Shown here: positions 38,214 through 48,614 of the stretch, piece by piece
How positions within the stretch are numbered: the first letter of the stretch is position 1
How the letters are laid out: every line of letters starts with the position of its first letter
Source: Calothrix sp. C42_A2020_038
GTDB lineage: Bacteria; Cyanobacteriota; Cyanobacteriia; Cyanobacteriales; Nostocaceae
Length of the DNA: 64,000 nt
Assembly (NCBI GenBank): GCA_015272395.1
Contig: JACYLQ010000035.1
Coordinates: forward strand, 62,001-126,000
Reading direction: 5' to 3'
Notes under the pieces: model-generated
The model's input: only the letters and a program-made list of their open reading frames with translations
Told to the model about the DNA's origin: nothing
Database searches by the model: none
Program-made: the position numbers and the translations under genes

Positions 38214-39917
38214 ATGCATCAAACTCCAGAGGAACGGGCTAGTGATTTAACAACCCCACCTGAGTTGTTACGAGAGTTAGCTGGAAGCGATGATGCTTCT
38301 GTTCGTAAGAAGGTTATAGTTAATCCAAATACACCGACTGACGTACTGCTAACCTTAGCAGATGAATTTCCGAATATATTTTTTAGTAATCCGGTGTTGT
38401 CGTTGTTAATGCTGGAAAATCCAAATTTTCCTCTAGAAATACCTTATTGGACTTTAATAAATCTTTTACGGCAACCACAGGCGCCTGAGTTTTTCTTGTC
38501 CTCTGCTGCAATGCATCCTAACCCGGAAGTACTACGTGTAGTTGCTAAACACTATAAAACTCCAATTTCAGCTTTGGAGGTAATGGCACACTGCAAAGAC
38601 GCAAGTTTAGGAATACAAATTGCCCAGCGTCAAGATGTGACTGAACAAATTTTGCTTATACTAGCTGAACATGGTGCAATTGCAGTCCGTTTGTATTTAG
38701 CCAAGTACCACAAAACCCCTTGTAGTATTTTAGAAAAACTGGCAGAAGCACCTGAGCCTAATTGGACTTTTCGCCAGCAAATTCATCAAAAACTTGCAAA
38801 AAACCCAAATACCCCTTTAGCAGTAATACAGAAACTGCTTGAAGAAGGTGATAAGAAAGTAAAGCAAGCAATCGCAACACGTGCGGATTTGCCCATTGAT
38901 ATAATTGTCAAGCTAGCGCTCGATTACAGATTGCATATAATGAACTCGCTAGCACAAAATACTTCTATTAGTGCTAAGGTACTACATGAATTAGCAAATC
39001 ATGGTGAACTACGAGTCCGACAAATGGTAGCAAGGCACCCAAACACGCCGCAAGCTCTATTAATTGATGCAGCAAAATCACCTGAACTACGCCAGTACAT
39101 TGCTGCAAACCCTAGCGCGTCGCCAGATTTACTTAATCAATTAATCGAAGATAATCAAAATCAGGAGGTATTGGAAGCTGTCGCCAGCAATCCTAGTACC
39201 CCTGCATTTGTTCTGAAACGTATTGCTCAAACTCGGTCGCATGACTTAGTAGTTGCCCAGCATCCAAATGCGACTCCTGAATTACTACAAAAAATACTTT
39301 GGCGCTTGGCAATGGATGAGCGACTGTCAGTTCGCAAGTTCGTTGCCAAACATCCTCATGCACCAAAAGATATTTTAAAAATGTGGGTGCAAAAAGAACC
39401 ACAACTACGAAATTATATTGCTCAAAATCCGAGTCTTCCTATTGAAATCCTAGAATTTCTTGCCAGGGATGCATCACCGAAAGTGCGTTTAGCAGTTGCT
39501 TACAATCCCAGTACACCAAAATCTGTTCTGGAAAAACTATCATTTGACACCGAAATCGAGATTAAACGAGCAGTTGCAAGCAATACTAATACTCCTGGGC
39601 ATGTTTTGGAAATACTAGTAAGAGATTGGCAATGTTGCACATTTGTTGCTCAAAACCCCAATACTCCCACTAAGGTATTAGAGTATTTAGGACGTTTGAC
39701 TGGGTTTAACTGGCTTTTGCTTGCACATCCAAATACTTCAGTAGAAATGCGGCAGACGTTGCTTGGGAATTTCGCTAAAAGTTACGTTGAGTCCGACCGT
39801 CTGTATGCTGCCCGACACCCTGATACACCAACCGAAATCTTACTGGATTTAGCCAAGGATAGTAACTTGGAAATTCGGAGTGTGGCACTTCAGGCGCTTA
39901 AAAAACATCGTACCTAA
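38214..39917 (+). CDS. LRV (variant leucine-rich repeat) protein 1
   Basis: 567 residues made almost wholly of about 24-residue repeats with the plan V-A-x-N-P-N-T-P-x-x-x-L-x-x-L-A-x-D-x-x-x-x-V-R, for example 'VARHPNTPQALLIDAAKSPE' and 'VAYNPSTPKSVLEKLSFDTE'. The first 100 residues form a distinct module ('NPNTPTDVLLTLADEFPNIF', then 'NPVLSLLMLENPNFPLEIP') that is also present in the genes at 42433 and 43640. No signal peptide, membrane helix or Fe-S cysteine set is seen. AAGGA before the ATG supports the start. It is 31 bases from the MoxR gene, so it is in the same operon. Confidence 0.88.
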   Translation: MHQTPEERASDLTTPPELLRELAGSDDASVRKKVIVNPNTPTDVLLTLADEFPNIFFSNPVLSLLMLENPNFPLEIPYWTLINLLRQPQAPEFFLSSAAMHPNPEVLRVVAKHYKTPISALEVMAHCKDASLGIQIAQRQDVTEQILLILAEHGAIAVRLYLAKYHKTPCSILEKLAEAPEPNWTFRQQIHQKLAKNPNTPLAVIQKLLEEGDKKVKQAIATRADLPIDIIVKLALDYRLHIMNSLAQNTSISAKVLHELANHGELRVRQMVARHPNTPQALLIDAAKSPELRQYIAANPSASPDLLNQLIEDNQNQEVLEAVASNPSTPAFVLKRIAQTRSHDLVVAQHPNATPELLQKILWRLAMDERLSVRKFVAKHPHAPKDILKMWVQKEPQLRNYIAQNPSLPIEILEFLARDASPKVRLAVAYNPSTPKSVLEKLSFDTEIEIKRAVASNTNTPGHVLEILVRDWQCCTFVAQNPNTPTKVLEYLGRLTGFNWLLLAHPNTSVEMRQTLLGNFAKSYVESDRLYAARHPDTPTEILLDLAKDSNLEIRSVALQALKKHRT

Positions 39918-39948
39918 AAGACTGCTTACCTTAATCAAATCATAAAGT

Positions 39949-40959
39949 ATGACTCCTAGCCAACTTAAAACGTATTTAAATAGCTTAATTGCCAAAAATC
40001 TTCAAATCAGCACAATGATTTGGGGTCCTCCTGGTATTGGAAAATCAAGCATTGTTGGGCAAATCGCCCAAGAACACGACATTGACTTTGTTGATGTACG
40101 TTTATCACAACTGGCGCCTACTGATCTACGTGGACTGCCTGTTGCAGAAGATGGGATTTCCAAGTGGTTCCCACCTGAATTTTTACCAAGAGATGGTAAA
40201 GGTATTTTTTTTCTAGATGAATTAAATATGGCGCCACCTGCAATGCAAGGAGTTGCACAACAGCTAATTTTAGACCGTAAAGTAGGTAGTTATAATGTAC
40301 CAGATGGTTGGTTTATTTGGGCGGCTGGAAATCGTAAGGAAGACCGTGCAGCTGTTTTTGATATGCCAGCACCCCTAGCAAATAGATTTTTACATTTAGA
40401 AGTAGAAGTAGATTTTGATAGCTTTAAAGCATACGCATTAGAAAAAGAATTACACGAACAAATAATCGCGTTTCTTTCGTTTCGTTCAACGCTACTGCAC
40501 AAAATAGACCCTCAACAACCAGCATTTCCGACTCCACGTTCATGGGAAATGGCTAGTCATTTACATTATGCAGGACTTGACACTTCACCTGCTGTTGGTA
40601 AAGGTGCTACTGCGGAATTTATTGCTTATTTAGAAGTTTATCAAACTTTACCTAGTTTGACACCAATTCTTGAAGGTAAAGGTGCTAAGGTCGCTTTTCC
40701 GAAAGAACCTAGCGCTCGCTATGCAACAGTTATCGGTTTAACAGTACGCGCGGCAGATGCTAAACAAGGGTACAATGCATACAAATGGTTAAGTGATAAA
40801 GCTGCAACTGAGTGGGTACAATTTTTGATTGCAGATTTGTTACCCATGATGCGTATTAAAGGACACTTGGGAGTTTTTGCCACCTTAGCAAAGCAAGATG
40901 CTGATTTACAAAAATTCATCCAAGAATATTACCAACTAATAGGCATAAACAAGTCATAG
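39949..40959 (+). CDS. MoxR-type AAA+ ATPase
   Basis: 336 residues. Walker A WGPPGIGKSSIVG (about 25-37), 'QLAPTDLRGLPVAEDG' (the pre-Walker B region of MoxR proteins), Walker B IFFLDELN near 90, sensor 1 'FIWAAGNRKED', and arginine-finger 'PAPLANRFLHLEV'. MoxR ATPases work with VWA proteins as chaperones for metal-cofactor insertion or complex assembly. It is followed by the DUF2201 gene, its usual partner, and flanked by LRV genes. Confidence 0.93.
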   Translation: MTPSQLKTYLNSLIAKNLQISTMIWGPPGIGKSSIVGQIAQEHDIDFVDVRLSQLAPTDLRGLPVAEDGISKWFPPEFLPRDGKGIFFLDELNMAPPAMQGVAQQLILDRKVGSYNVPDGWFIWAAGNRKEDRAAVFDMPAPLANRFLHLEVEVDFDSFKAYALEKELHEQIIAFLSFRSTLLHKIDPQQPAFPTPRSWEMASHLHYAGLDTSPAVGKGATAEFIAYLEVYQTLPSLTPILEGKGAKVAFPKEPSARYATVIGLTVRAADAKQGYNAYKWLSDKAATEWVQFLIADLLPMMRIKGHLGVFATLAKQDADLQKFIQEYYQLIGINKS

Positions 40960-41087
40960 GATTTTGGATTTTAGATTTGTCGTGCGACAATGAATAGATT
41001 TTAGATGATCTACTTCCGCAAAATGAATCTAAGAGGTTATTTTAAAAGTCTAAAAATATATATACATTATACCCCTCTCTGGTAAAC

Positions 41088-41108
41088 CTCTCCCCAACAC
41101 GGGGAGAG
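41088..41108. repeat. CTCTCCCC hairpin between MoxR and DUF2201 genes
   Basis: CTCTCCCC and GGGGAGAG around AACAC. The same 247-base gap begins with a copy of the ATTTTGGATTT/TCGTGCGACA repeat at 40960. There is no T run, so the operon could still be read through. Confidence 0.75.
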
Positions 41109-41206
41109 TCTTTGAAAGGAGTATTTCCTGGGGTTAGGGTTAGGTTTTCAGTCAATAATGATGCTTTTCCAACATCCTCTAATCCGTTTTCCTAATATTT
41201 ATATTT

Positions 41207-42358
41207 ATGACACAAGACATCCAAAAACTGATTAGTGCCTCATTAATTAGGTTGCGAACAAAATCACCGTTTTTTGCAACTTTAGCACTATTTGCGCGTT
41301 TTATTCCGACTCTTCAACATCAAACAGCTGCAACTGACGGTAAAGATATATTTTACAATCCTGAATTTTTACTTTCACTACCCCCAGCGCAACTCGATGG
41401 TGTGTTATTACACGAAGTGTTACATGCTGCATTACTACATGTTCCACGTAGAGGTGTACGCGACCCAATATTGTGGAACTTTGCTGCGGATATTGTGACT
41501 AATGGTATTATCATGCAGCAGGGTACTTTTGAACTGCCTGGGGGGTTGCGCGACCAGCAACTAGAGCATCTCAGTGTTGAGGAAATATACGAAATCCTCC
41601 TCCAAGACGCAAATAAATATAAAGAAATGTGGGAATCTGGTCATGCTGGTTTAGCTGATTTACTTGATAGTTCAGAAGGTTTGGACGAAGAAGGGGACAG
41701 TATATCTGAAGCGCGTAGAGCGGCATTAGAAGCACATTGGCGCAATGCACTACAGCAAGCAGCAGTAATTGCCCGTTCATCTAAACAAGGTACACTACCC
41801 GCAGGAATTGAGCGTGAACTAGGTAATGTTACGACCCCGCAAATCGATTGGCGTTCCTATCTGTGGCGTTATTTAGTTCAAACACCAACCGATTTTACTG
41901 GTTTTGACCGTCGATTTATCGGGCGCCAGCTATATTTGGAGGCGCTCCAAGGTGAATCAGTAATAGTCTATGTTGCGGTTGATACTAGTGGTTCGATTGA
42001 AGGTAAGCAATTGCAACTATTTTTAAGCGAAGTCAGCGGAATTTTACGTTCCTATCCTCATCTACAATGTGAGTTATATTACGTTGATGTTGAAGCCTAT
42101 GGTCCTTACGAACTCAACCCTGATCGTCCTCTGCCAAAACCACAGGGAGGAGGCGGCACTTCGTTCATACCATTTTTTGATCAGGTGGCAGAACGGTGGG
42201 ACGGACATGCACAAGCGGTATGTGTGTATTTAACAGATGGATATGGTATTTTCCCAGATAAGGCACCACAACTTCCTGTTTTATGGGTAGTCACACCTGG
42301 TGGGATGAATTTAGAATTATTCCCATTTGGTGAGAGCGTCCGCTTACTAACTGCATAA
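41207..42358 (+). CDS. DUF2201 protein: metallopeptidase-like N-terminus + VWA
   Basis: 383 residues. N-terminal half has an HExxH zinc-type site (H69-E70-x-x-H73 in 'LDGVLLHEVLHAALLHVPRR') and 'WNFAADIVTNGIIMQ'. C-terminal half is a VWA-like fold with metal site D259-T-S-G-S in 'VYVAVDTSGSIEG', then 'GGGGTSFIPFFD' and 'VYLTDGYGIF'. The pairing with MoxR is widespread and suggests an ATP-driven chaperone or protease-like complex; proteolysis has not been shown to my knowledge. Here it is enclosed by LRV genes. Confidence 0.92.
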   Translation: MTQDIQKLISASLIRLRTKSPFFATLALFARFIPTLQHQTAATDGKDIFYNPEFLLSLPPAQLDGVLLHEVLHAALLHVPRRGVRDPILWNFAADIVTNGIIMQQGTFELPGGLRDQQLEHLSVEEIYEILLQDANKYKEMWESGHAGLADLLDSSEGLDEEGDSISEARRAALEAHWRNALQQAAVIARSSKQGTLPAGIERELGNVTTPQIDWRSYLWRYLVQTPTDFTGFDRRFIGRQLYLEALQGESVIVYVAVDTSGSIEGKQLQLFLSEVSGILRSYPHLQCELYYVDVEAYGPYELNPDRPLPKPQGGGGTSFIPFFDQVAERWDGHAQAVCVYLTDGYGIFPDKAPQLPVLWVVTPGGMNLELFPFGESVRLLTA

Positions 42359-42432
42359 AGCTAACAGATAAATAATATTAAAATTCCTGGGAATAATAAA
42401 GGGTAAATCAATACCCCAATTATTTCTATCCA

Positions 42433-43443
42433 ATGCAAAAAGCCCTAGAAAAACAAGCCATAGATGCCAGTACTCCATCCGAAGAACTTAGGAAATTAGC
42501 AGATACTCACAATGGAGCAGTTCGCAAACTCGTTGCAGGCAACCCCAATACCCCTCCAGACCTACTTACAGAACTATTTATCGAATATCCGCACCAAGTT
42601 CTCAAGAATCCTGTCATTGAGCTACTTCTACTCGAAAACCCTGATTTTTTTAAACAGCTGTATCAAACTAATCCCTATATTTTTAACGAAGACGCTCTAC
42701 CTCCTCTATTTCTAGAATGGGCAGTACATTGTTCAGATGAGGGTATTCGTAAAACCATAGCGGGAAATGACAATACACCTGACTTATTTTTAATGCAACT
42801 GGCTGAAGATGAAAGTGTGGATGTACGTTGTAACGTTGCAGAAAATCACCGTACTAACGCCGACACGTTAAAAAAACTAGCAGAAGATAAAAATAAAAAA
42901 GTTCGTCTTGCAGTTGCAGAAAATCTAAATATTCCTGAATGCGCATTGTTAAAGCTAGCAACAGATAAATGTTATGAAGTTCGCAGTAAAATCGCGACCC
43001 ACACCAAAACGCCTAGTCATGTGTTGGAAAAATTAATCCATGACACTAATGGTATTGTTCGCTTCGGCGCCGCAAGAAATCCGAATACACCTCAATCTGT
43101 GGTCAATCAATTACTGGAAAAGTTGATTCGGTATGACATTAGAATCCTTCAAGAGTATAAATTACCCGAATCTTTTCTAGAGTGGGCTGTTAATCATCAG
43201 GACACGAATATACGTGTTGCTGTAGCTAGCAATTCACATACACCACAAACTTTATTAATGCAGTTAGCACAAGATCAAGATACTTCTGTACGCACGGCTG
43301 TAGCTAAAAACTCTAAATCTAGTCGTAAAACTTTAACAAAACTTGCCCAAGATCAGAACGAATCGATTTGTTTTTTTGCTGCCTGGACACTCAAAGAACG
43401 TGCAGATTATTACTACTTTGACTATGATGATAACCCATTTTAA
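42433..43443 (+). CDS. LRV (variant leucine-rich repeat) protein 2
   Basis: 336 residues. The N-terminal module is clear: 'VAGNPNTPPDLLTELFIEYP', 'NPVIELLLLENPDFFKQLY', 'PPLFLEWAVHC', followed by about ten LRV units ('VAENHRTNADTLKKLAEDKN'). A second 'LPESFLEWAVNHQDTNIRVA' suggests the module's end piece is duplicated inside. Starts 74 bases after DUF2201, so likely co-transcribed. Soluble. Confidence 0.87.
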   Translation: MQKALEKQAIDASTPSEELRKLADTHNGAVRKLVAGNPNTPPDLLTELFIEYPHQVLKNPVIELLLLENPDFFKQLYQTNPYIFNEDALPPLFLEWAVHCSDEGIRKTIAGNDNTPDLFLMQLAEDESVDVRCNVAENHRTNADTLKKLAEDKNKKVRLAVAENLNIPECALLKLATDKCYEVRSKIATHTKTPSHVLEKLIHDTNGIVRFGAARNPNTPQSVVNQLLEKLIRYDIRILQEYKLPESFLEWAVNHQDTNIRVAVASNSHTPQTLLMQLAQDQDTSVRTAVAKNSKSSRKTLTKLAQDQNESICFFAAWTLKERADYYYFDYDDNPF

Positions 43444-43639
43444 ATAACTAACTAATATGCGAGAAAATCATCTTTACCTTTTATTGTGATCTCAAAAAAT
43501 AATTAATAGATAAATATAAGTAAATTGTCTCAAGATTTTTAAAATAGAAATATTTCCGTAAAAATACAAATGTGATTTGAAGAAATTTATGACAACTTAA
43601 ATTCATAATCCTTATTATAAATTGATTCGTTATTTCTCT

Positions 43640-46345
43640 ATGGCCAACTCTTCCAATTTGCTTGCACTCGTACAAGAAGCAGCTAGCGAAACCACCTCAC
43701 ATAAACGCTTGGAAGAGTTAGCACATACAAGCAGAGAAGTCGCACGTATCGTTGCTGCAAATGTATGTACTGCTCCAGAAGTGCTGCAACAGTTGGCAAA
43801 GAGTGAAGATGATGAGACACGCAAAGCTGTGGCAAGTAACCCAAATACCCCTACAGAAATATTATTTCAGTTAGGTGTAGAGTTTCCCTATGAGTTACTT
43901 GAAAATCCAGTGTTTTCACTCTTATTACTGGAAAATCCAAATTTATTTCAAGAATTACCCGAACATACACAAGCGAGTCTGCTCAAGTTAGAAGTAATTC
44001 CAGATACATTCTTACAGTGGGCATTGACTCATAAACGCCCAAAAACTATGTTTGCTGTGGCAATGAACCCTAAACTTAGTAAAAGCGATTTATGTAAGTT
44101 AGTATACGAAGCTGGTACTAACTGGTTAACTTCTCGGGTTGTGAATGTGGCCAAGCTACATGTTAACTGGATGGGAGAAATGAAAGCAGGATGGGAAGAA
44201 GCAGCTTTCTCCGTAATACAAAAACACCAATTAGTTAAAGATGATATTCAACACGATGAATTAGAGTTTAAATTATGGCAAATTGGTATAATTCCAGAAG
44301 CGTTTTTAGCAGGATTACATCGCAACACCCTAATCCAGATTGCTCGTAATCCTTGTGTTCCTGGGCACATCCTCGAAGCGCTATTTAAAAATCCAAAAAC
44401 AGCTACTAAAAAGGTACGCGCAGCAATTGCAAATAATTTAAATACCCCTATCCATCTTTTAGAACAGCTTGCTGGTGATGATGATGCGTGGGTGCGGCAA
44501 ACAGTGTTTCAAAACCCAAATACTCCTGCTACTATTTATCGTTTGTTTTACGAATACTCTTCCGCAATTCAAAATCCTGATACGACTGGCGCCACTTTAA
44601 GCGAAATTGCAAAACGTGATTGGGAATATACGCGAACAGGTGTTGCATCACACCCGAACACTCCACCTGAAATATTAATGAAACTAGCGTATAACAAATC
44701 TTGGAAAACCCGTGCGGCAGTTGCTGGGAACCCTAGTGTTCCAGTAGAAGTATTGGAAATACTTGTAGATGACAAGCGCTTGGGAGTTTGCCATGCTGTA
44801 ATTCGTAACCCAATTACTCCTGCATCTTTACTAGTAAGAATGTTGAGTAATTATAAATTTTATCAGCGTCAGGATATTGCCAGACATCCCAACGCAACTC
44901 CTGCAATTCTGGAATTACTCGCGCGCGATACAGATTGCTACGTGCGCGTAGCAGTAGTCGAAAACCCTAATACCCCAATGAAATTGCTAACATATCTTGC
45001 ACAAGATAAAGATTTCTATGTTCGTAATCATGTTGCGGGAAACTATAGAACCCCAGAAACAGTACTTGCACAATTAGCTGATGATAGCGAATATATGGTG
45101 CGTCAATACGTTGCTTATAATCCCAAAACCCCAGTTTCAGTTTTGAGGAAGTTGGCAACTGATGAAGATAATAATGTTCGATGTGCAGTTGCTGAAAATA
45201 TTAGTACTCCTGATGATGTACTCGCACTGCTAGAACAAGACAAGGTTGAGTGGGTTAAGGCTAAAGCCAAGAAATTTCGCCAAACTAAATTAATCAACCC
45301 ATTACATCAAGATTTCTCAACTGAAGACAATACTTTAGTTGCCGTAAATCCTGAAACTCCGATTGAAGTTTTACTTGAACTCGTGCGCACCGATACTTAC
45401 CAAGTTCATCTACTATCAATTCAGAATATTTGTCGGAGGATGGCAACATCCAATATGTCTACTGCATTACTAGAAAAATGTGCTGTATTTGACACGATTG
45501 AAATACAAATTGCATTAGCTAGACATCCAAATATACCTGAGTCTGTGGCTGCTAAATTAGTATCAAGCCAGTCGGTTCGCTTGCGTCGGCTAGTAGCGCA
45601 AAACCCGAACATTATTCAGGTGGCGCCAGAACTTGTCAAGAAGCTTTTGCAAGATAAAGACGAGGATGTTCGACACACAGTACTAGCTCGATTACTGAGA
45701 GAAAAAACTACTAATAATTGTTTAAATCATCCGAACTTCTACTGTGAGTTTTTGCAGGAATGGCAAGCTGTACAAAATCCTGATGCATCCAGTCAAGTAC
45801 TAATAGAACTAGCACAAAGTCAATGGATAATTATTCGCGAAGCTGTAGCACTACATCCTAAAGCTGCCATGATTTTGTTTGCTCCATCGATAGAACCGAA
45901 GCTAAACACTTCAAGAAGTTGCTGTAAAAGTGATGGGAGCATGACTTTATTAGAAAAATTGGCATTGGACGAGCATACTGCTGTCAAAATCGCAGTTGCG
46001 AGAAATTCTAACTCTCCTGCCGATGTGCTGGAAAACCTTGCTCGTAATTATAAACCAAACAATTCAATACACATTGCAGCAGTAAAAGCTTTGATTAACT
46101 ATTACCCACGGGGCAAATTATATCTAAAATCTTTTATTAACAATAATTTTGCTTCAATTTCTAACTTCTTTGTGCTACTGCACCATCTGGCGCCGAGTGA
46201 TTTGTTAGCAAAACACGGACGCTCATCATCTTGGCTAGAAAGGTATGCAGTCGCAACAAACCCTAACACTCCCCAGCAGATTCGCCAAATGCTAGCACAA
46301 GATGCCAATCGTATAGTCCGCGCGGCAGCGAAAGCGCTCATGTAG
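43640..46345 (+). CDS. LRV (variant leucine-rich repeat) protein 3, long
   Basis: 901 residues from ATG 43640; a TTG six codons upstream is less likely. N-terminal module 'VASNPNTPTEILFQLGVEFP', 'NPVFSLLLLENPNLFQELPE', 'IPDTFLQWALTHKRP', then roughly two dozen LRV units to the end ('VATNPNTPQQIRQMLAQDAN'). A middle block (about 150-235, 'WLTSRVVNVAKLHVNWMGEM') is not repeat-like and could be a specific binding surface. 196 bases separate it from LRV2, enough for its own promoter. Confidence 0.86.
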   Translation: MANSSNLLALVQEAASETTSHKRLEELAHTSREVARIVAANVCTAPEVLQQLAKSEDDETRKAVASNPNTPTEILFQLGVEFPYELLENPVFSLLLLENPNLFQELPEHTQASLLKLEVIPDTFLQWALTHKRPKTMFAVAMNPKLSKSDLCKLVYEAGTNWLTSRVVNVAKLHVNWMGEMKAGWEEAAFSVIQKHQLVKDDIQHDELEFKLWQIGIIPEAFLAGLHRNTLIQIARNPCVPGHILEALFKNPKTATKKVRAAIANNLNTPIHLLEQLAGDDDAWVRQTVFQNPNTPATIYRLFYEYSSAIQNPDTTGATLSEIAKRDWEYTRTGVASHPNTPPEILMKLAYNKSWKTRAAVAGNPSVPVEVLEILVDDKRLGVCHAVIRNPITPASLLVRMLSNYKFYQRQDIARHPNATPAILELLARDTDCYVRVAVVENPNTPMKLLTYLAQDKDFYVRNHVAGNYRTPETVLAQLADDSEYMVRQYVAYNPKTPVSVLRKLATDEDNNVRCAVAENISTPDDVLALLEQDKVEWVKAKAKKFRQTKLINPLHQDFSTEDNTLVAVNPETPIEVLLELVRTDTYQVHLLSIQNICRRMATSNMSTALLEKCAVFDTIEIQIALARHPNIPESVAAKLVSSQSVRLRRLVAQNPNIIQVAPELVKKLLQDKDEDVRHTVLARLLREKTTNNCLNHPNFYCEFLQEWQAVQNPDASSQVLIELAQSQWIIIREAVALHPKAAMILFAPSIEPKLNTSRSCCKSDGSMTLLEKLALDEHTAVKIAVARNSNSPADVLENLARNYKPNNSIHIAAVKALINYYPRGKLYLKSFINNNFASISNFFVLLHHLAPSDLLAKHGRSSSWLERYAVATNPNTPQQIRQMLAQDANRIVRAAAKALM

Positions 46346-46576: not shown

Positions 46577-46993
46577 CTACACTTGCTTTATATGCTTGAC
46601 TTCAACAACTGTATGTACATTTCCGCGCGGGGTAAAGTCAGCTTTGACAGTAAGTTCTAAGGGGTCACAAGCTGCAACAAAATCATCAAGAATTTGGTTG
46701 GCTGACTCCTCATGAGATATATATCTATCGCGATAACTATTAATGTAAAGCTTTAAGGCTTTCAACTCTACTACTTTTGTATCCGGAATGTAGCTAACAT
46801 AAATAGTCGCAAAATCGGGATAACCAGAAAATGGACACTTACATGTGAATTCTGGCAAAGTAATGTTTATATTATACCGTCTACCTATACGTGGATTTGG
46901 AAATGTAATCAGTTGACCTTCTGCAATTTCCCGTTCGCCATACTTCATCTCTTGAACTGGCTGTGTTGTGATTTCAGGTGATGAGTTACTCAT
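46577..46993 (-). CDS. queF: NADPH-dependent 7-cyano-7-deazaguanine reductase
   Basis: 138 residues, the short YkvM-type QueF. The active-site block is 'FTCKCPFSGYPDFATI' with the nucleophile C53 and D60, followed by the QueF motif 'ELKALKLYINSYRDRYISHE'. It reduces preQ0 to preQ1 for queuosine in tRNA. No preQ1 riboswitch motif was noticed in its leader. Confidence 0.95.
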   Translation of the reverse strand: MSNSSPEITTQPVQEMKYGEREIAEGQLITFPNPRIGRRYNINITLPEFTCKCPFSGYPDFATIYVSYIPDTKVVELKALKLYINSYRDRYISHEESANQILDDFVAACDPLELTVKADFTPRGNVHTVVEVKHIKQV

Positions 46994-47067
46994 ATATTAT
47001 GCTGCTGAACCTAACATCATATGATAACAGTACTCAGATTGCTGCTATTGTTGCTCACCCAAACTCT

Positions 47068-47478
47068 TTAATCAAAAAATTCTTCTTTTTCCCAGTCTGG
47101 GCAAGTAATCTCTTCTACACCACTTGGATGCATCCCACAAACTAACAAATTACCACCATATGCATACCCATGATAATGCTTACAACCTATGCAAGCTGGG
47201 TTCTTTTCTTTTGTGGCTTCTACAGAATAGGGAAATGCGGGGTCAAAACTTTCACTTGATATGTTGTCAAGTTCCCAATAACTATCTGAAAACGGTTCGA
47301 CTATATCTTGCAAGTATTGGTCAACTTCTGTAGCGATAGTGTTGTTTACTTGCTCGCTCAATTCTTCTGTAAACTCAAAGAATGTGTCCACCATTTCCGT
47401 CATTCCTAGGAAGAAACGCTCTACCTCGTCAGCCAGTGTTTCCATAATTTGCCAAAAATCTTTTTGCCAATTTTCCAT
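47068..47478 (-). CDS. conserved cyanobacterial protein with Cys cluster
   Basis: 136 residues. The N-terminal half is an acidic amphipathic helix bundle ('MENWQKDFWQIMETLADEVE'). The C-terminal half has CIGCKHYHGYAYGGNLLVC, GMHPSG, then C-P-D-W, an arrangement of four cysteines and histidines that could bind Zn or Fe-S. Known to me only as a conserved hypothetical of cyanobacteria. Function unknown. Confidence 0.75.
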   Translation of the reverse strand: MENWQKDFWQIMETLADEVERFFLGMTEMVDTFFEFTEELSEQVNNTIATEVDQYLQDIVEPFSDSYWELDNISSESFDPAFPYSVEATKEKNPACIGCKHYHGYAYGGNLLVCGMHPSGVEEITCPDWEKEEFFD

Positions 47479-47715
47479 AATGTATTTCCAATTCCTAACT
47501 GGCTTTAGCGCAAAAAATACTGTTAGTGCCTCTTTCTAAAGATTAACTATCTTATCTCAACACCTTTACCACACTACTACAACACTGCTTTGAGATTCGA
47601 GCATCGGGGTTAACACTATTTGTATCTTCTAGTACTTGTATAGTCCCTCAAATCAATTGCACAACACCATAAGCACAAGTTATCTAAAATATTAAGTTAA
47701 TAATAAAATAATAAA

Positions 47716-48111
47716 TTATTGGTCACGCTGTAAACGTCGCAACTCTTCTTGCATTTGTCTGACTTGGTCACGTAGATTATCGACCTCCTCAGTAGGTGCT
47801 TCTCTTGTCGAAGATTCTTTGGGAGCTACTTCTTCATCTTCCTCTAAAATCTCAATTCGCCGGGGTTGAGAACTACTACTTTCTGTCTCTTGGACAGAAA
47901 CCTGCCCTTGCTGGGCTTGTTTCATCATATCTTCCACAAATCGCCGCGCTTCTTCGGTCGTCATTTCACCGCGCGCGACCATTTCGTCTGCCAGCTTCTG
48001 AACTTGCGAGCGTAGCTCAACAAGTTTACCGCCTGCTTTTTCTCCTGCATAGGAAGCTAGTCCAACGCCGAGATAAAAGGCTTTCTGTACTAAATCTCCA
48101 AAACCAGGCAT
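47716..48111 (-). CDS. phasin-like/helical granule-associated protein
   Basis: 131 residues. 'FGDLVQKAFYLGVGLASYAG', then 'ELRSQVQKLADEMVARGEMT' and 'EEARRFVEDMMKQ' give the phasin-like helix plan; a low-complexity acidic linker leads to a short C-terminal coiled coil ('NLRDQVRQMQEELRRLQRD'). Similar proteins are annotated phasin or polyhydroxyalkanoate granule-associated, but here no pha genes are near. It lies beside ffs on the same strand. Confidence 0.75.
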   Translation of the reverse strand: MPGFGDLVQKAFYLGVGLASYAGEKAGGKLVELRSQVQKLADEMVARGEMTTEEARRFVEDMMKQAQQGQVSVQETESSSSQPRRIEILEEDEEVAPKESSTREAPTEEVDNLRDQVRQMQEELRRLQRDQ

Positions 48112-48155
48112 TACTGAGTTTAAGCTTGTAGCTAATATATAATTTTCACTTAGGG

Positions 48156-48249
48156 TGACCGGGGTCTACGCCTACTACAAGCATCCCGTATTGCTGCTAC
48201 CTTCCGGTCCTGACAAGGTTTAGGCGTTGCGGTTGCATAGTCCCAGTCA
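48156..48249 (-). ncRNA. ffs: signal recognition particle RNA (small bacterial type)
   Basis: On the minus strand the domain IV loop GTCAGGACCGGAAGGTAGCAGC is shortened here to its signature GACCGGAAGGTAGCAGC, the universal SRP RNA core that binds Ffh. The ends TGACTGGG and CCCCGGTCA pair, setting the approximate limits of a 94-nt RNA. It targets membrane proteins with Ffh and FtsY. It lies between the phasin-like gene and a YciI gene. Confidence 0.92.
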
Positions 48250-48298
48250 TCTACTAGGATAGCATGATATTTAGAGCATTGTGTACAAAAAACATTTA

Positions 48299-48565
48299 TT
48301 ACTCCACAACGATTCGCCATTCGTACAGTTGGTAATCAACACAGCCGTTTTTAATTAAAGGGTCTTCGCTGACAATTGCTTGTGCTTGTTCAAATGAGTC
48401 TGCCTCAAAAATCATCATCCCCCCTCCTCTTGCAGCCCAGTATCCACTCCGTGCTTGGTGCCCGCGCGCAATCAGTTCACGCACGTAGTTATGATGAGCA
48501 GGTATGTACTGGTCAAACGTTGATTTATCAACTTTACCTTCTTCAATCTTGACAAAAATCGGCAT
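48299..48565 (-). CDS. YciI-like (YCII) protein
   Basis: 88 residues from ATG 48565, with AGGAAGAG just upstream; a longer frame to 48601 is open but not like the family. 'FVKIEEGKVDKSTFDQYIPA' start, 'RSGYWAARGGGMMIFEADSF', 'PLIKNGCVDYQLYEWRIV' end. YciI proteins adopt a dimeric ferredoxin-like fold; function is mostly unknown. A second, different YciI gene is at 52174. Confidence 0.88.
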   Translation of the reverse strand: MPIFVKIEEGKVDKSTFDQYIPAHHNYVRELIARGHQARSGYWAARGGGMMIFEADSFEQAQAIVSEDPLIKNGCVDYQLYEWRIVVE

Positions 48566-48614
48566 ATACTCTTCCTGAACGAAATTGCATAACCCGGACA
48601 CAATCTAAAATCCA

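What the first reader, a model, noticed from the sequence alone, without database searches (positions are those of the whole stretch)
38214..46345. LRV / MoxR / DUF2201 / LRV / LRV gene set: candidate new chaperone-type system
A MoxR ATPase and its DUF2201 (HExxH + VWA) partner are enclosed by three paralogous LRV-repeat proteins totalling about 1,800 residues. MoxR-VWA pairs act as assembly machines or parts of NTP-dependent conflict/stress systems; the LRV proteins would be large binding surfaces or adaptors that bring clients. The tight spacing of LRV1-MoxR (31 bases) and DUF2201-LRV2 (74 bases) argues for a functional unit. I know of no described system with this composition.
Basis: inference. 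Interest (0 to 1): 0.8.

Follow-up and report, generated by a model that had tools for sequence, protein, structure and literature searches.

The report
LRV-adaptor MoxR–metallopeptidase gene system
Five neighbouring genes in a cyanobacterium encode an ATP-driven ring protein, a probable zinc peptidase and three large spring-shaped binding proteins; the set recurs in several bacterial phyla, appears undescribed, and phages carry the ATPase and peptidase genes without the binding proteins.

Summary
In detail: LRV1, MoxR, DUF2201 (HExxHxxxxH plus vWA), LRV2 and LRV3 lie on one strand as stated. The LRV partners share a 62-residue N-terminal 'cap', 47% identical between random pairs against 26-27% in the repeats that follow. 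Of 98 distinct DUF2201 loci, 49 have a cap-LRV gene within 5 kb, in five phyla or classes. Among loci not chosen for an LRV, cap-LRV stands directly upstream of MoxR, same strand, in 31 of 65, against 0 of 10 control MoxR genes. In four genomes DUF2201 lies elsewhere yet LRV stays beside MoxR. In 148 genomes, 20 of 22 with DUF2201 have cap-LRV, 5 of 126 without. Phages carry MoxR-DUF2201 (N4 gp24-gp25), but my repeat model found no LRV in 80 viral loci. Most likely mechanism, inferred: LRV adaptors dock by the cap on MoxR and bring clients to an ATP-driven metallopeptidase. Role (defence, stress or metal maturation) is unproven. No published description was found in the searches made.

The parts
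38214..39917 (+). LRV1, 567 aa alpha-solenoid; capped LRV protein directly upstream of MoxR
   Evidence: Pfam LRV 6e-44; cap at residues 11-72; model pLDDT 92.5, all helical
38244..38429 (+). N-terminal cap module of LRV1
   Evidence: L031:6244-6429 in alignment A1, shifted by 32000
39949..40959 (+). MoxR-type AAA+ ATPase, 336 aa
   Evidence: Pfam AAA/AAA_5; Walker A at 26, Walker B at 86; alignment A3
41207..42358 (+). DUF2201 protein, 383 aa: DUF2201_N putative metallopeptidase (HEVLHAALLH) plus vWA-like domain (DTSGS MIDAS)
   Evidence: Pfam; motif conservation in 58 sequences; model pLDDT 88
42433..43443 (+). LRV2, 336 aa
   Evidence: Pfam LRV 2.9e-35; cap in A1
42463..42648 (+). N-terminal cap module of LRV2
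   Evidence: L031:10463-10648 in A1, shifted by 32000
43622..46345 (+). LRV3, 907 aa (possible ATG start at 43640)
   Evidence: Pfam LRV 2.7e-54; cap in A1
43760..43945 (+). N-terminal cap module of LRV3
   Evidence: L031:11760-11945 in A1, shifted by 32000

Best explanation
This is one system with three kinds of part. MoxR forms the ATP-driven ring. DUF2201 is its vWA partner and carries a zinc-peptidase-like domain. The LRV proteins are interchangeable recognition subunits: a constant N-terminal cap docks on the MoxR (or MoxR-DUF2201) particle, and the variable solenoid binds a client protein. The ring then remodels the captured client and the metallopeptidase cuts or processes it. Shown here: composition, cap, gene order, co-occurrence, conservation of the metal-site and MIDAS residues, and faster divergence of the LRV genes. 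Inferred: ring formation, cap docking, client binding and proteolysis. The biological role is open; guarding against foreign or damaged proteins is my first guess.
For: Cap-LRV within 5 kb of DUF2201 in 49 of 98 distinct loci; 34 of the 70 that come from the DUF2201-only scan. Cap-LRV immediately upstream of MoxR, same strand, in 36 of 70 readable loci, never on the opposite strand, median gap 56.5 bases, four overlapping by 4 bases; five of the 36 were fetched because they hold a cap-LRV, so the fair figure is 31 of 65, against 0 of 10 control MoxR genes (p 0.003). LRV-MoxR stays paired where DUF2201 lies elsewhere: G124, G090, G149, G152. Genomes: 20 of 22 with DUF2201 have cap-LRV, 5 of 126 without (p 4e-18), 15 of 16 against 5 of 65 genera (p 3e-11); leaving out the 13 genomes whose LRVs built the cap model, 7 of 9 against 5 of 126 (p 2e-7). 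Cap conserved, repeats divergent. LRV dN/dS 0.07-0.27 against 0.025-0.054 for MoxR and 0.06-0.11 for DUF2201. H69, H73, H78, D95 and the MIDAS residues D259, S261, S263 in 58 of 58, E70 in 55 of 58. A tandem array of seven LRV genes (L041). The repeat partner can differ: pentapeptide directly downstream in L079 and L083, ankyrin in L143.
Against: No complex was modelled; cap docking rests on gene order and conservation. The catalytic Glu is lost in the three gammaproteobacterial members L078, L084 and L131. Three Prochlorococcus genomes of 1.2-1.4 Mb show no cap-LRV and viral loci none, so LRV is not obligatory. Of 53 cap-LRV ORFs in the 148 genomes I could place 34 beside MoxR or DUF2201; of the other 19, nine are in one genome, four were not read and one ends at a contig edge. 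Of 19 stretches read around cap-LRV genes away from DUF2201, 14 have no MoxR. LRV adjacency changes at least 21 times on the 98-row DUF2201 tree, so linkage is loose. No peptidase fold came out of the PDB search; its top hits were vWA domains. The five proteins match no defence model beyond one weak ATPase hit.
Confidence: 0.45

Rival explanations
1. Metal-insertion or maturation chaperone, like NorQ/NorD or CoxD/CoxE: DUF2201's His/Asp cluster carries metal, not catalysis, and LRV proteins dock the apo-enzymes to be matured.
For: NorQ-NorD precedent for MoxR-vWA metal insertion (PMC13036017, outline and abstract). The four metal-ligand candidates persist in 58 of 58 while the catalytic Glu does not.
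Against: Glu is kept in 55 of 58. LRV number and length vary widely, which suits many clients. I did not annotate most recurrent neighbours, so a client metalloenzyme nearby is not excluded.
Confidence: 0.2
2. Conflict (defence) system of the MoxR-vWA ternary type: LRV senses an invader and MoxR-DUF2201 is the threshold-set effector. Phages carry an LRV-less pair as counterpart or decoy.
For: Patchy distribution: none of the seven other sampled genomes of the same family has an orthologous DUF2201 or a cap-LRV. On Synechocystis pSYSA, called a defense plasmid in a paper title (PMC9978351, listing), MoxR-DUF2201 and a cap-LRV lie about 4 kb apart among toxin-antitoxin and cas genes. Phage homologues in 465 records. 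Published MoxR-vWA conflict systems (PMC7159879, passages).
Against: No FtsH or beta-propeller among the five proteins; no VMAP or STAND match either, though no dedicated model was run. In two close relatives of the window's locus the downstream flanking genes are conserved as well, unlike a mobile island. No dN/dS above 1. No enrichment test of defence genes was run.
Confidence: 0.3
3. LRV genes are unrelated neighbours and only MoxR-DUF2201 is a system.
For: Viral loci and three Prochlorococcus genomes have the pair alone; many cap-LRV genes lie away from MoxR and DUF2201.
Against: Gene order, co-occurrence and the cap across phyla.
Confidence: 0.03

Closest known systems
MoxR-vWA ternary conflict systems (VMAP, iSTAND, FtsH, beta-propeller; PMC7159879)
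   Same: MoxR ATPase plus vWA protein plus a third component; repeat domains used as modules
   Different: vWA joined to a DUF2201_N metallopeptidase domain; the partner is a capped LRV solenoid; FtsH and beta-propeller not present, VMAP and iSTAND not detected; 'LRV' does not occur in that paper's main text
Phage N4 gp24/gp25 pair (PHROG 1297/1314 type)
   Same: MoxR ATPase and full DUF2201_N-DUF2201 protein side by side
   Different: No LRV gene found in 80 viral loci; distant sequence; I know of no tested role
NorQ/NorD and CoxD/CoxE
   Same: MoxR ring with a vWA co-factor (PMC13036017 abstract)
   Different: No peptidase-like domain and no LRV partner (recalled)
Leucine-rich repeat variant protein, PDB 1lrv
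   Same: LRV repeats (phmmer E 2e-4)
   Different: Its iron-sulphur part and nif link (recalled) were not looked for here; window LRVs have the cap and a MoxR neighbour

Membership tests
MoxR-vWA pair (general) | AAA+ ATPase with Walker A/B beside a vWA protein with an intact MIDAS | tested here: met
MoxR-vWA pair (general) | Helix-2 insert of the MoxR clade | not tested
   No structure of the ATPase was predicted
VMAP ternary system | MoxR N-terminal extension with WxhapG and PsWRxa motifs | tested here: not met
   Only 25 residues precede Walker A and neither motif is there; motif text
VMAP ternary system | VMAP protein in the locus | tested here: inconclusive
   No such family among the Pfam hits of the five proteins, but I do not know that Pfam holds a VMAP model; flanking genes not scanned
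iSTAND ternary system | Inactive STAND NTPase as third component | tested here: inconclusive
   No STAND match in the five proteins; no dedicated model run
FtsH ternary system | FtsH-type AAA+ gene in the set | tested here: not met
   The only AAA+ protein of the five is MoxR; flanking genes not scanned
Beta-propeller MoxR-vWA system | Beta-propeller fused to the vWA protein | tested here: not met
   DUF2201 protein has only DUF2201_N and DUF2201
DUF2201 (HExxH-vWA) family | DUF2201_N plus DUF2201 with HExxH and DxSxS | tested here: met
Active zinc peptidase | Metal binding and peptide cleavage | not testable with these tools
   Only motif conservation is available
LRV repeat proteins | Tandem PF01816 repeats forming an alpha-solenoid | tested here: met
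   weak phmmer match to 1lrv

The most novel reading that the evidence does not exclude
A widespread ATP-driven metalloprotease with swappable repeat-protein recognition subunits: one constant docking cap, many variable solenoids, in some lineages replaced by pentapeptide or ankyrin proteins. It would be a bacterial analogue of adaptor-swapped protein-removal machines, and N4-like phages would carry its adaptor-less form as a near-core gene pair to run, or to block, the same reaction.
Probability: 0.3. Interest if true: 0.85.

Novelty: new variant of a known kind. Interest (0 to 1): 0.66.

Why it matters
MoxR-vWA machines are common, but what tells each one its client is mostly unknown (recalled). 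Here a constant cap and variable solenoids, genetically tied to MoxR, offer a direct candidate for client choice. It also gives a cellular setting for a phage gene pair (N4 gp24-gp25) whose second member is annotated as an endonuclease although Pfam shows none of that.

Tried and rejected
Chance adjacency was rejected by the controls. Membership of a described MoxR-vWA conflict system was rejected where tested (membership table). A PADLOC match was weak only (IetA-like ATPase, E 5e-4). Thermus LRV: the annotated start gives a half cap, so it counts as LRV without cap. Label corrections: my LRV repeat model flagged ten of the 59 LRV-positive loci without a cap. Pfam confirms LRV for L068, but calls the partner HEAT in L137 and L142 and finds no family in L078; the other six were not checked, so I rest claims on the cap. 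Gammaproteobacterial and verrucomicrobial partners are therefore not counted as members; whether they are repeat adaptors is open. An SDR-like gene recurs in ten loci of two phyla, but in 148 genomes only 5 of the 12 with it have DUF2201 (p 0.02), so it is at best an accessory. The PDB fold search of DUF2201 gave vWA domains at the top and that of LRV1 general helical scaffolds such as PP2A-A. A PHROG family of unknown function matches LRV2 (phrog_20647, E 4e-7), so phages may hold LRV-like proteins in other settings; not followed up. Paper search for COG3864 gave nothing. Not done: defence-island enrichment, complex modelling, search of viral contigs with the cap itself.

A correction made on re-check: G073 was first counted among genomes with DUF2201 split from LRV-MoxR. 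Its MoxR lies 396 bases from one contig end and its DUF2201 520 bases from another, so an assembly break may explain it and it is left out; four genomes remain.

Rows dropped before counts: one search left out L054-L066 (control family), five loci without a callable DUF2201 ORF (L086, L097, L110, L126, L147; of these L086 and L110 show MoxR and a cap-LRV, and L126 MoxR and an LRV-like gene) and five duplicates (L077, L092, L104, L113, L149). The same duplicates were left out, where 11 of 81 MoxR genes had no upstream gene in the locus and ORFs under 130 aa were passed over; 27 genomes asked, L080 not held, 26 searched.
Full report
Observation. Pfam gives LRV for the three large proteins, AAA/AAA_5 for the ATPase and DUF2201_N plus DUF2201 for the fourth. 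The ATPase has Walker A and B; the DUF2201 protein has HEVLHAALLH at 69 and DTSGS at 259.

Survey in the same order. A DUF2201 profile (PF09967) rings in 52 of 148 genomes; 22 of these have a strong match (over 50 bits). I read 36 stretches of up to 20 kb. Of these, 23 carry a close relative of the window's protein (over 450 bits); the other 13, L054-L066, hold distant pairs (90 bits or less, or no match). LRV genes lie beside the close relatives in 14 of 23 and beside none of the 13. Arrangements differ: seven tandem LRV genes in L041, LRV on the other strand between MoxR and DUF2201 in L033, LRV between the two in L042.

The cap. Most LRV partners start with a common module: one ordinary repeat, a second with NPNTPxxVLxxLG, then EFPxxLLxNPxFxLLLLENPxL (alignment A1, 21 sequences). 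In 92 distinct cap-LRV proteins the cap is on average 47% identical in 1,200 random pairs, against 27% and 26% in the next two 62-residue stretches; for 48 pairs of paralogues in one locus it is 70% against 44% and 42%. The proteins were picked by their match to the cap, which raises the cap figure somewhat. The start is kept constant while the repeats diverge.

Co-occurrence. In the same 148 genomes 25 have a cap match over 60 bits. Of the 22 genomes with DUF2201, 20 have a cap-LRV (G041 and G117 do not); of 126 without, 5 do (G055, G056, G074, G075, G091). Fisher p is 4e-18 by genome and 3e-11 by genus. The cap model was built from 13 of these genomes; without them the count is 7 of 9 against 5 of 126, p 2e-7. 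Related genomes are not independent and the bit thresholds were set after seeing the gaps in the lists, so these p values are only a guide. By my count, 34 of 53 cap-LRV ORFs lie beside MoxR or DUF2201. Of the other 19, nine are in one genome (G137), four were not read (in G046, G091, G024 and G137) and one ends at a contig edge (G107).

Other phyla. A scan of genome contigs with DUF2201 alone, led by a Thermus sequence, kept the best 80 of 554 loci. With the order's 23 and five plasmid or phage loci this makes 108, or 98 distinct loci after dropping ten. Cap-LRV lies within 5 kb in 49: Cyanobacteria 33 of 52, Deinococcota 3 of 5, Chloroflexota 9 of 17, Betaproteobacteria 3 of 6, Myxococcota 1 of 1; none in Gammaproteobacteria (4), Verrucomicrobiota (4), Prochlorococcus/Synechococcus (5), phages (2), Marinimicrobia (1), Rhodothermota (1) (phylum labels set by me from record titles). 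Some contigs end near DUF2201, so the figures are lower bounds. Ten more loci have an LRV-like protein without a cap; of those I checked, Pfam confirms LRV in L068, names HEAT in L137 and L142 and nothing in L078. On the DUF2201 tree the LRV label (repeat model, 5 kb) changes at least 21 times among 98 rows: the linkage is old and recurrent but loose.

Gene order. Where the gene upstream of MoxR can be read (70 loci), it is a cap-LRV on the same strand in 36 and on the opposite strand in none; the median gap is 56.5 bases and four overlap by four bases. Five of the 36 come from stretches fetched because they hold a cap-LRV; without them it is 31 of 65. In the ten control MoxR genes of L054-L066 with a readable upstream gene it is never an LRV (p 0.003). 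In four genomes whose DUF2201 has another gene upstream, the cap-LRV is found directly upstream of MoxR at a second site: G124, G090, G149 and G152 (L153, L156, L166, L167). G073 (L155) looks the same but contig ends leave it open. This ties LRV to MoxR in particular. On the other side, 14 of the 19 stretches read around such distant cap-LRV genes show no MoxR. Of 26 genomes searched because no LRV was seen beside their DUF2201, seven have a cap match over 60 bits in the genome.

The enzyme. In 58 sequences H69, H73, H78 and D95 never change; E70 is lost only in L078, L084 and L131; the MIDAS residues D259, S261 and S263 never change. The model (pLDDT 88) has the HExxH in one helix (60-75) and D95 in a later long one (87-104). 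The PDB search gives mostly vWA domains in the rows shown; the viral library finds full-length phage relatives, best Cyanophage S-TIM5 'Metallopeptidase'. No solved structure matches by sequence at E 0.1.

The LRV protein. LRV1 is modelled as one continuous helical solenoid, pLDDT 92.5, nearest to general HEAT scaffolds such as PP2A-A, with low TM-scores. Between the window and its five-gene relatives, dN/dS is 0.12-0.27 for LRV1 and LRV3, 0.07-0.19 for LRV2, 0.025-0.054 for MoxR and 0.06-0.11 for DUF2201. Some dS values are near saturation. No gene shows a value above 1.

Other partners. In L079 and L083 a pentapeptide-repeat gene follows DUF2201 directly, in L143 an ankyrin protein, and L106 has an LRV and a relative of the pentapeptide gene. 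This fits a common rule of MoxR-DUF2201 plus a repeat protein. LRV proteins can also carry a WGR domain (L123).

Phages. tblastn finds DUF2201 in 465 phage records. Phage N4 gp25 is a full DUF2201_N-DUF2201 protein beside the ATPase gp24, though annotated HNH endonuclease. A table in PMC7650795 (passage) lists gp24 and gp25 in the N4-like panproteome, gp25 by one of three methods; PMC4193335 calls them middle transcripts of N4 (passage). In 80 viral loci of up to 6 kb each side, 77 show DUF2201, 64 MoxR and none an LRV by my repeat model. PHROG 1314 carries the same 'HNH endonuclease' name. One PHROG of unknown function does match LRV2 (E 4e-7).

Literature. No held paper has MoxR with 'leucine rich repeat variant', nor the latter with 'AAA ATPase'; DUF2201 appears in four papers whose titles and abstract openings show no study of the family (listing only); a mixed search gave one coral genome paper (listing). 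The MoxR-vWA conflict paper PMC7159879 names VMAP, iSTAND, FtsH and beta-propeller systems and does not contain 'LRV' (passages). PMC10907252 and PMC12839542 likewise have no 'LRV' (passages). Subscription papers and preprints are outside this library.

Reading. The data show a recurrent three-part system and point to LRV-MoxR coupling. I infer that the cap docks LRV on the ring, that the solenoid binds clients, and that DUF2201 acts on them as a peptidase. The metal-insertion and conflict readings remain live, and the three can overlap. As the MoxR-vWA plus third component design is known, I rate it a new variant of a known kind.

Noticed in passing
L079:10424-11611, and in L080, L081, L083, L089, L094, L102, L104, L106, L109: SDR-like protein with an N-terminal CxxC...CxxC part; the usual YxxxK (recalled) reads TxxxK (invariant T293, K297 of A7), so it may bind NAD(P) without catalysis. 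It recurs near MoxR-DUF2201 in ten loci of two phyla; in Ktedonobacteria it has a long N-terminal extension, weakly DUF6602-like in the one member scanned.
   Followed up: partly
L171:2165-3307 (phage N4 gp25); PHROG 1314: Annotated HNH endonuclease but Pfam gives only DUF2201_N plus DUF2201, with HExxH and DxSGS; the phage annotation looks wrong.
   Followed up: partly
L041:4144-10482: Seven tandem cap-LRV genes with very similar caps; two 275-aa members start almost identically, pointing to recent duplication.
   Followed up: no
L152:8545-9639 (G000:C40): A fourth cap-LRV gene of the window's own genome, on another contig, 364 aa, with no MoxR or DUF2201 nearby.
   Followed up: no
G012:C1:3208300-3212400: Dense array of ordinary LRV repeats without a full cap match in a genome without a DUF2201 match: another use of LRV.
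   Followed up: no
L067:17427-19343: pSYSA of Synechocystis PCC 6803 carries a cap-LRV gene about 4 kb from its MoxR-DUF2201 pair, opposite strand, annotated hypothetical.
   Followed up: partly
window 46577-48601: Four small genes downstream on the minus strand, conserved in place in L085 and L093: the locus is stable in this clade.
   Followed up: no
window 42433-43443: LRV2 matches phrog_20647, a phage protein family of unknown function, E 4e-7: LRV-like repeats exist in phages.
   Followed up: no
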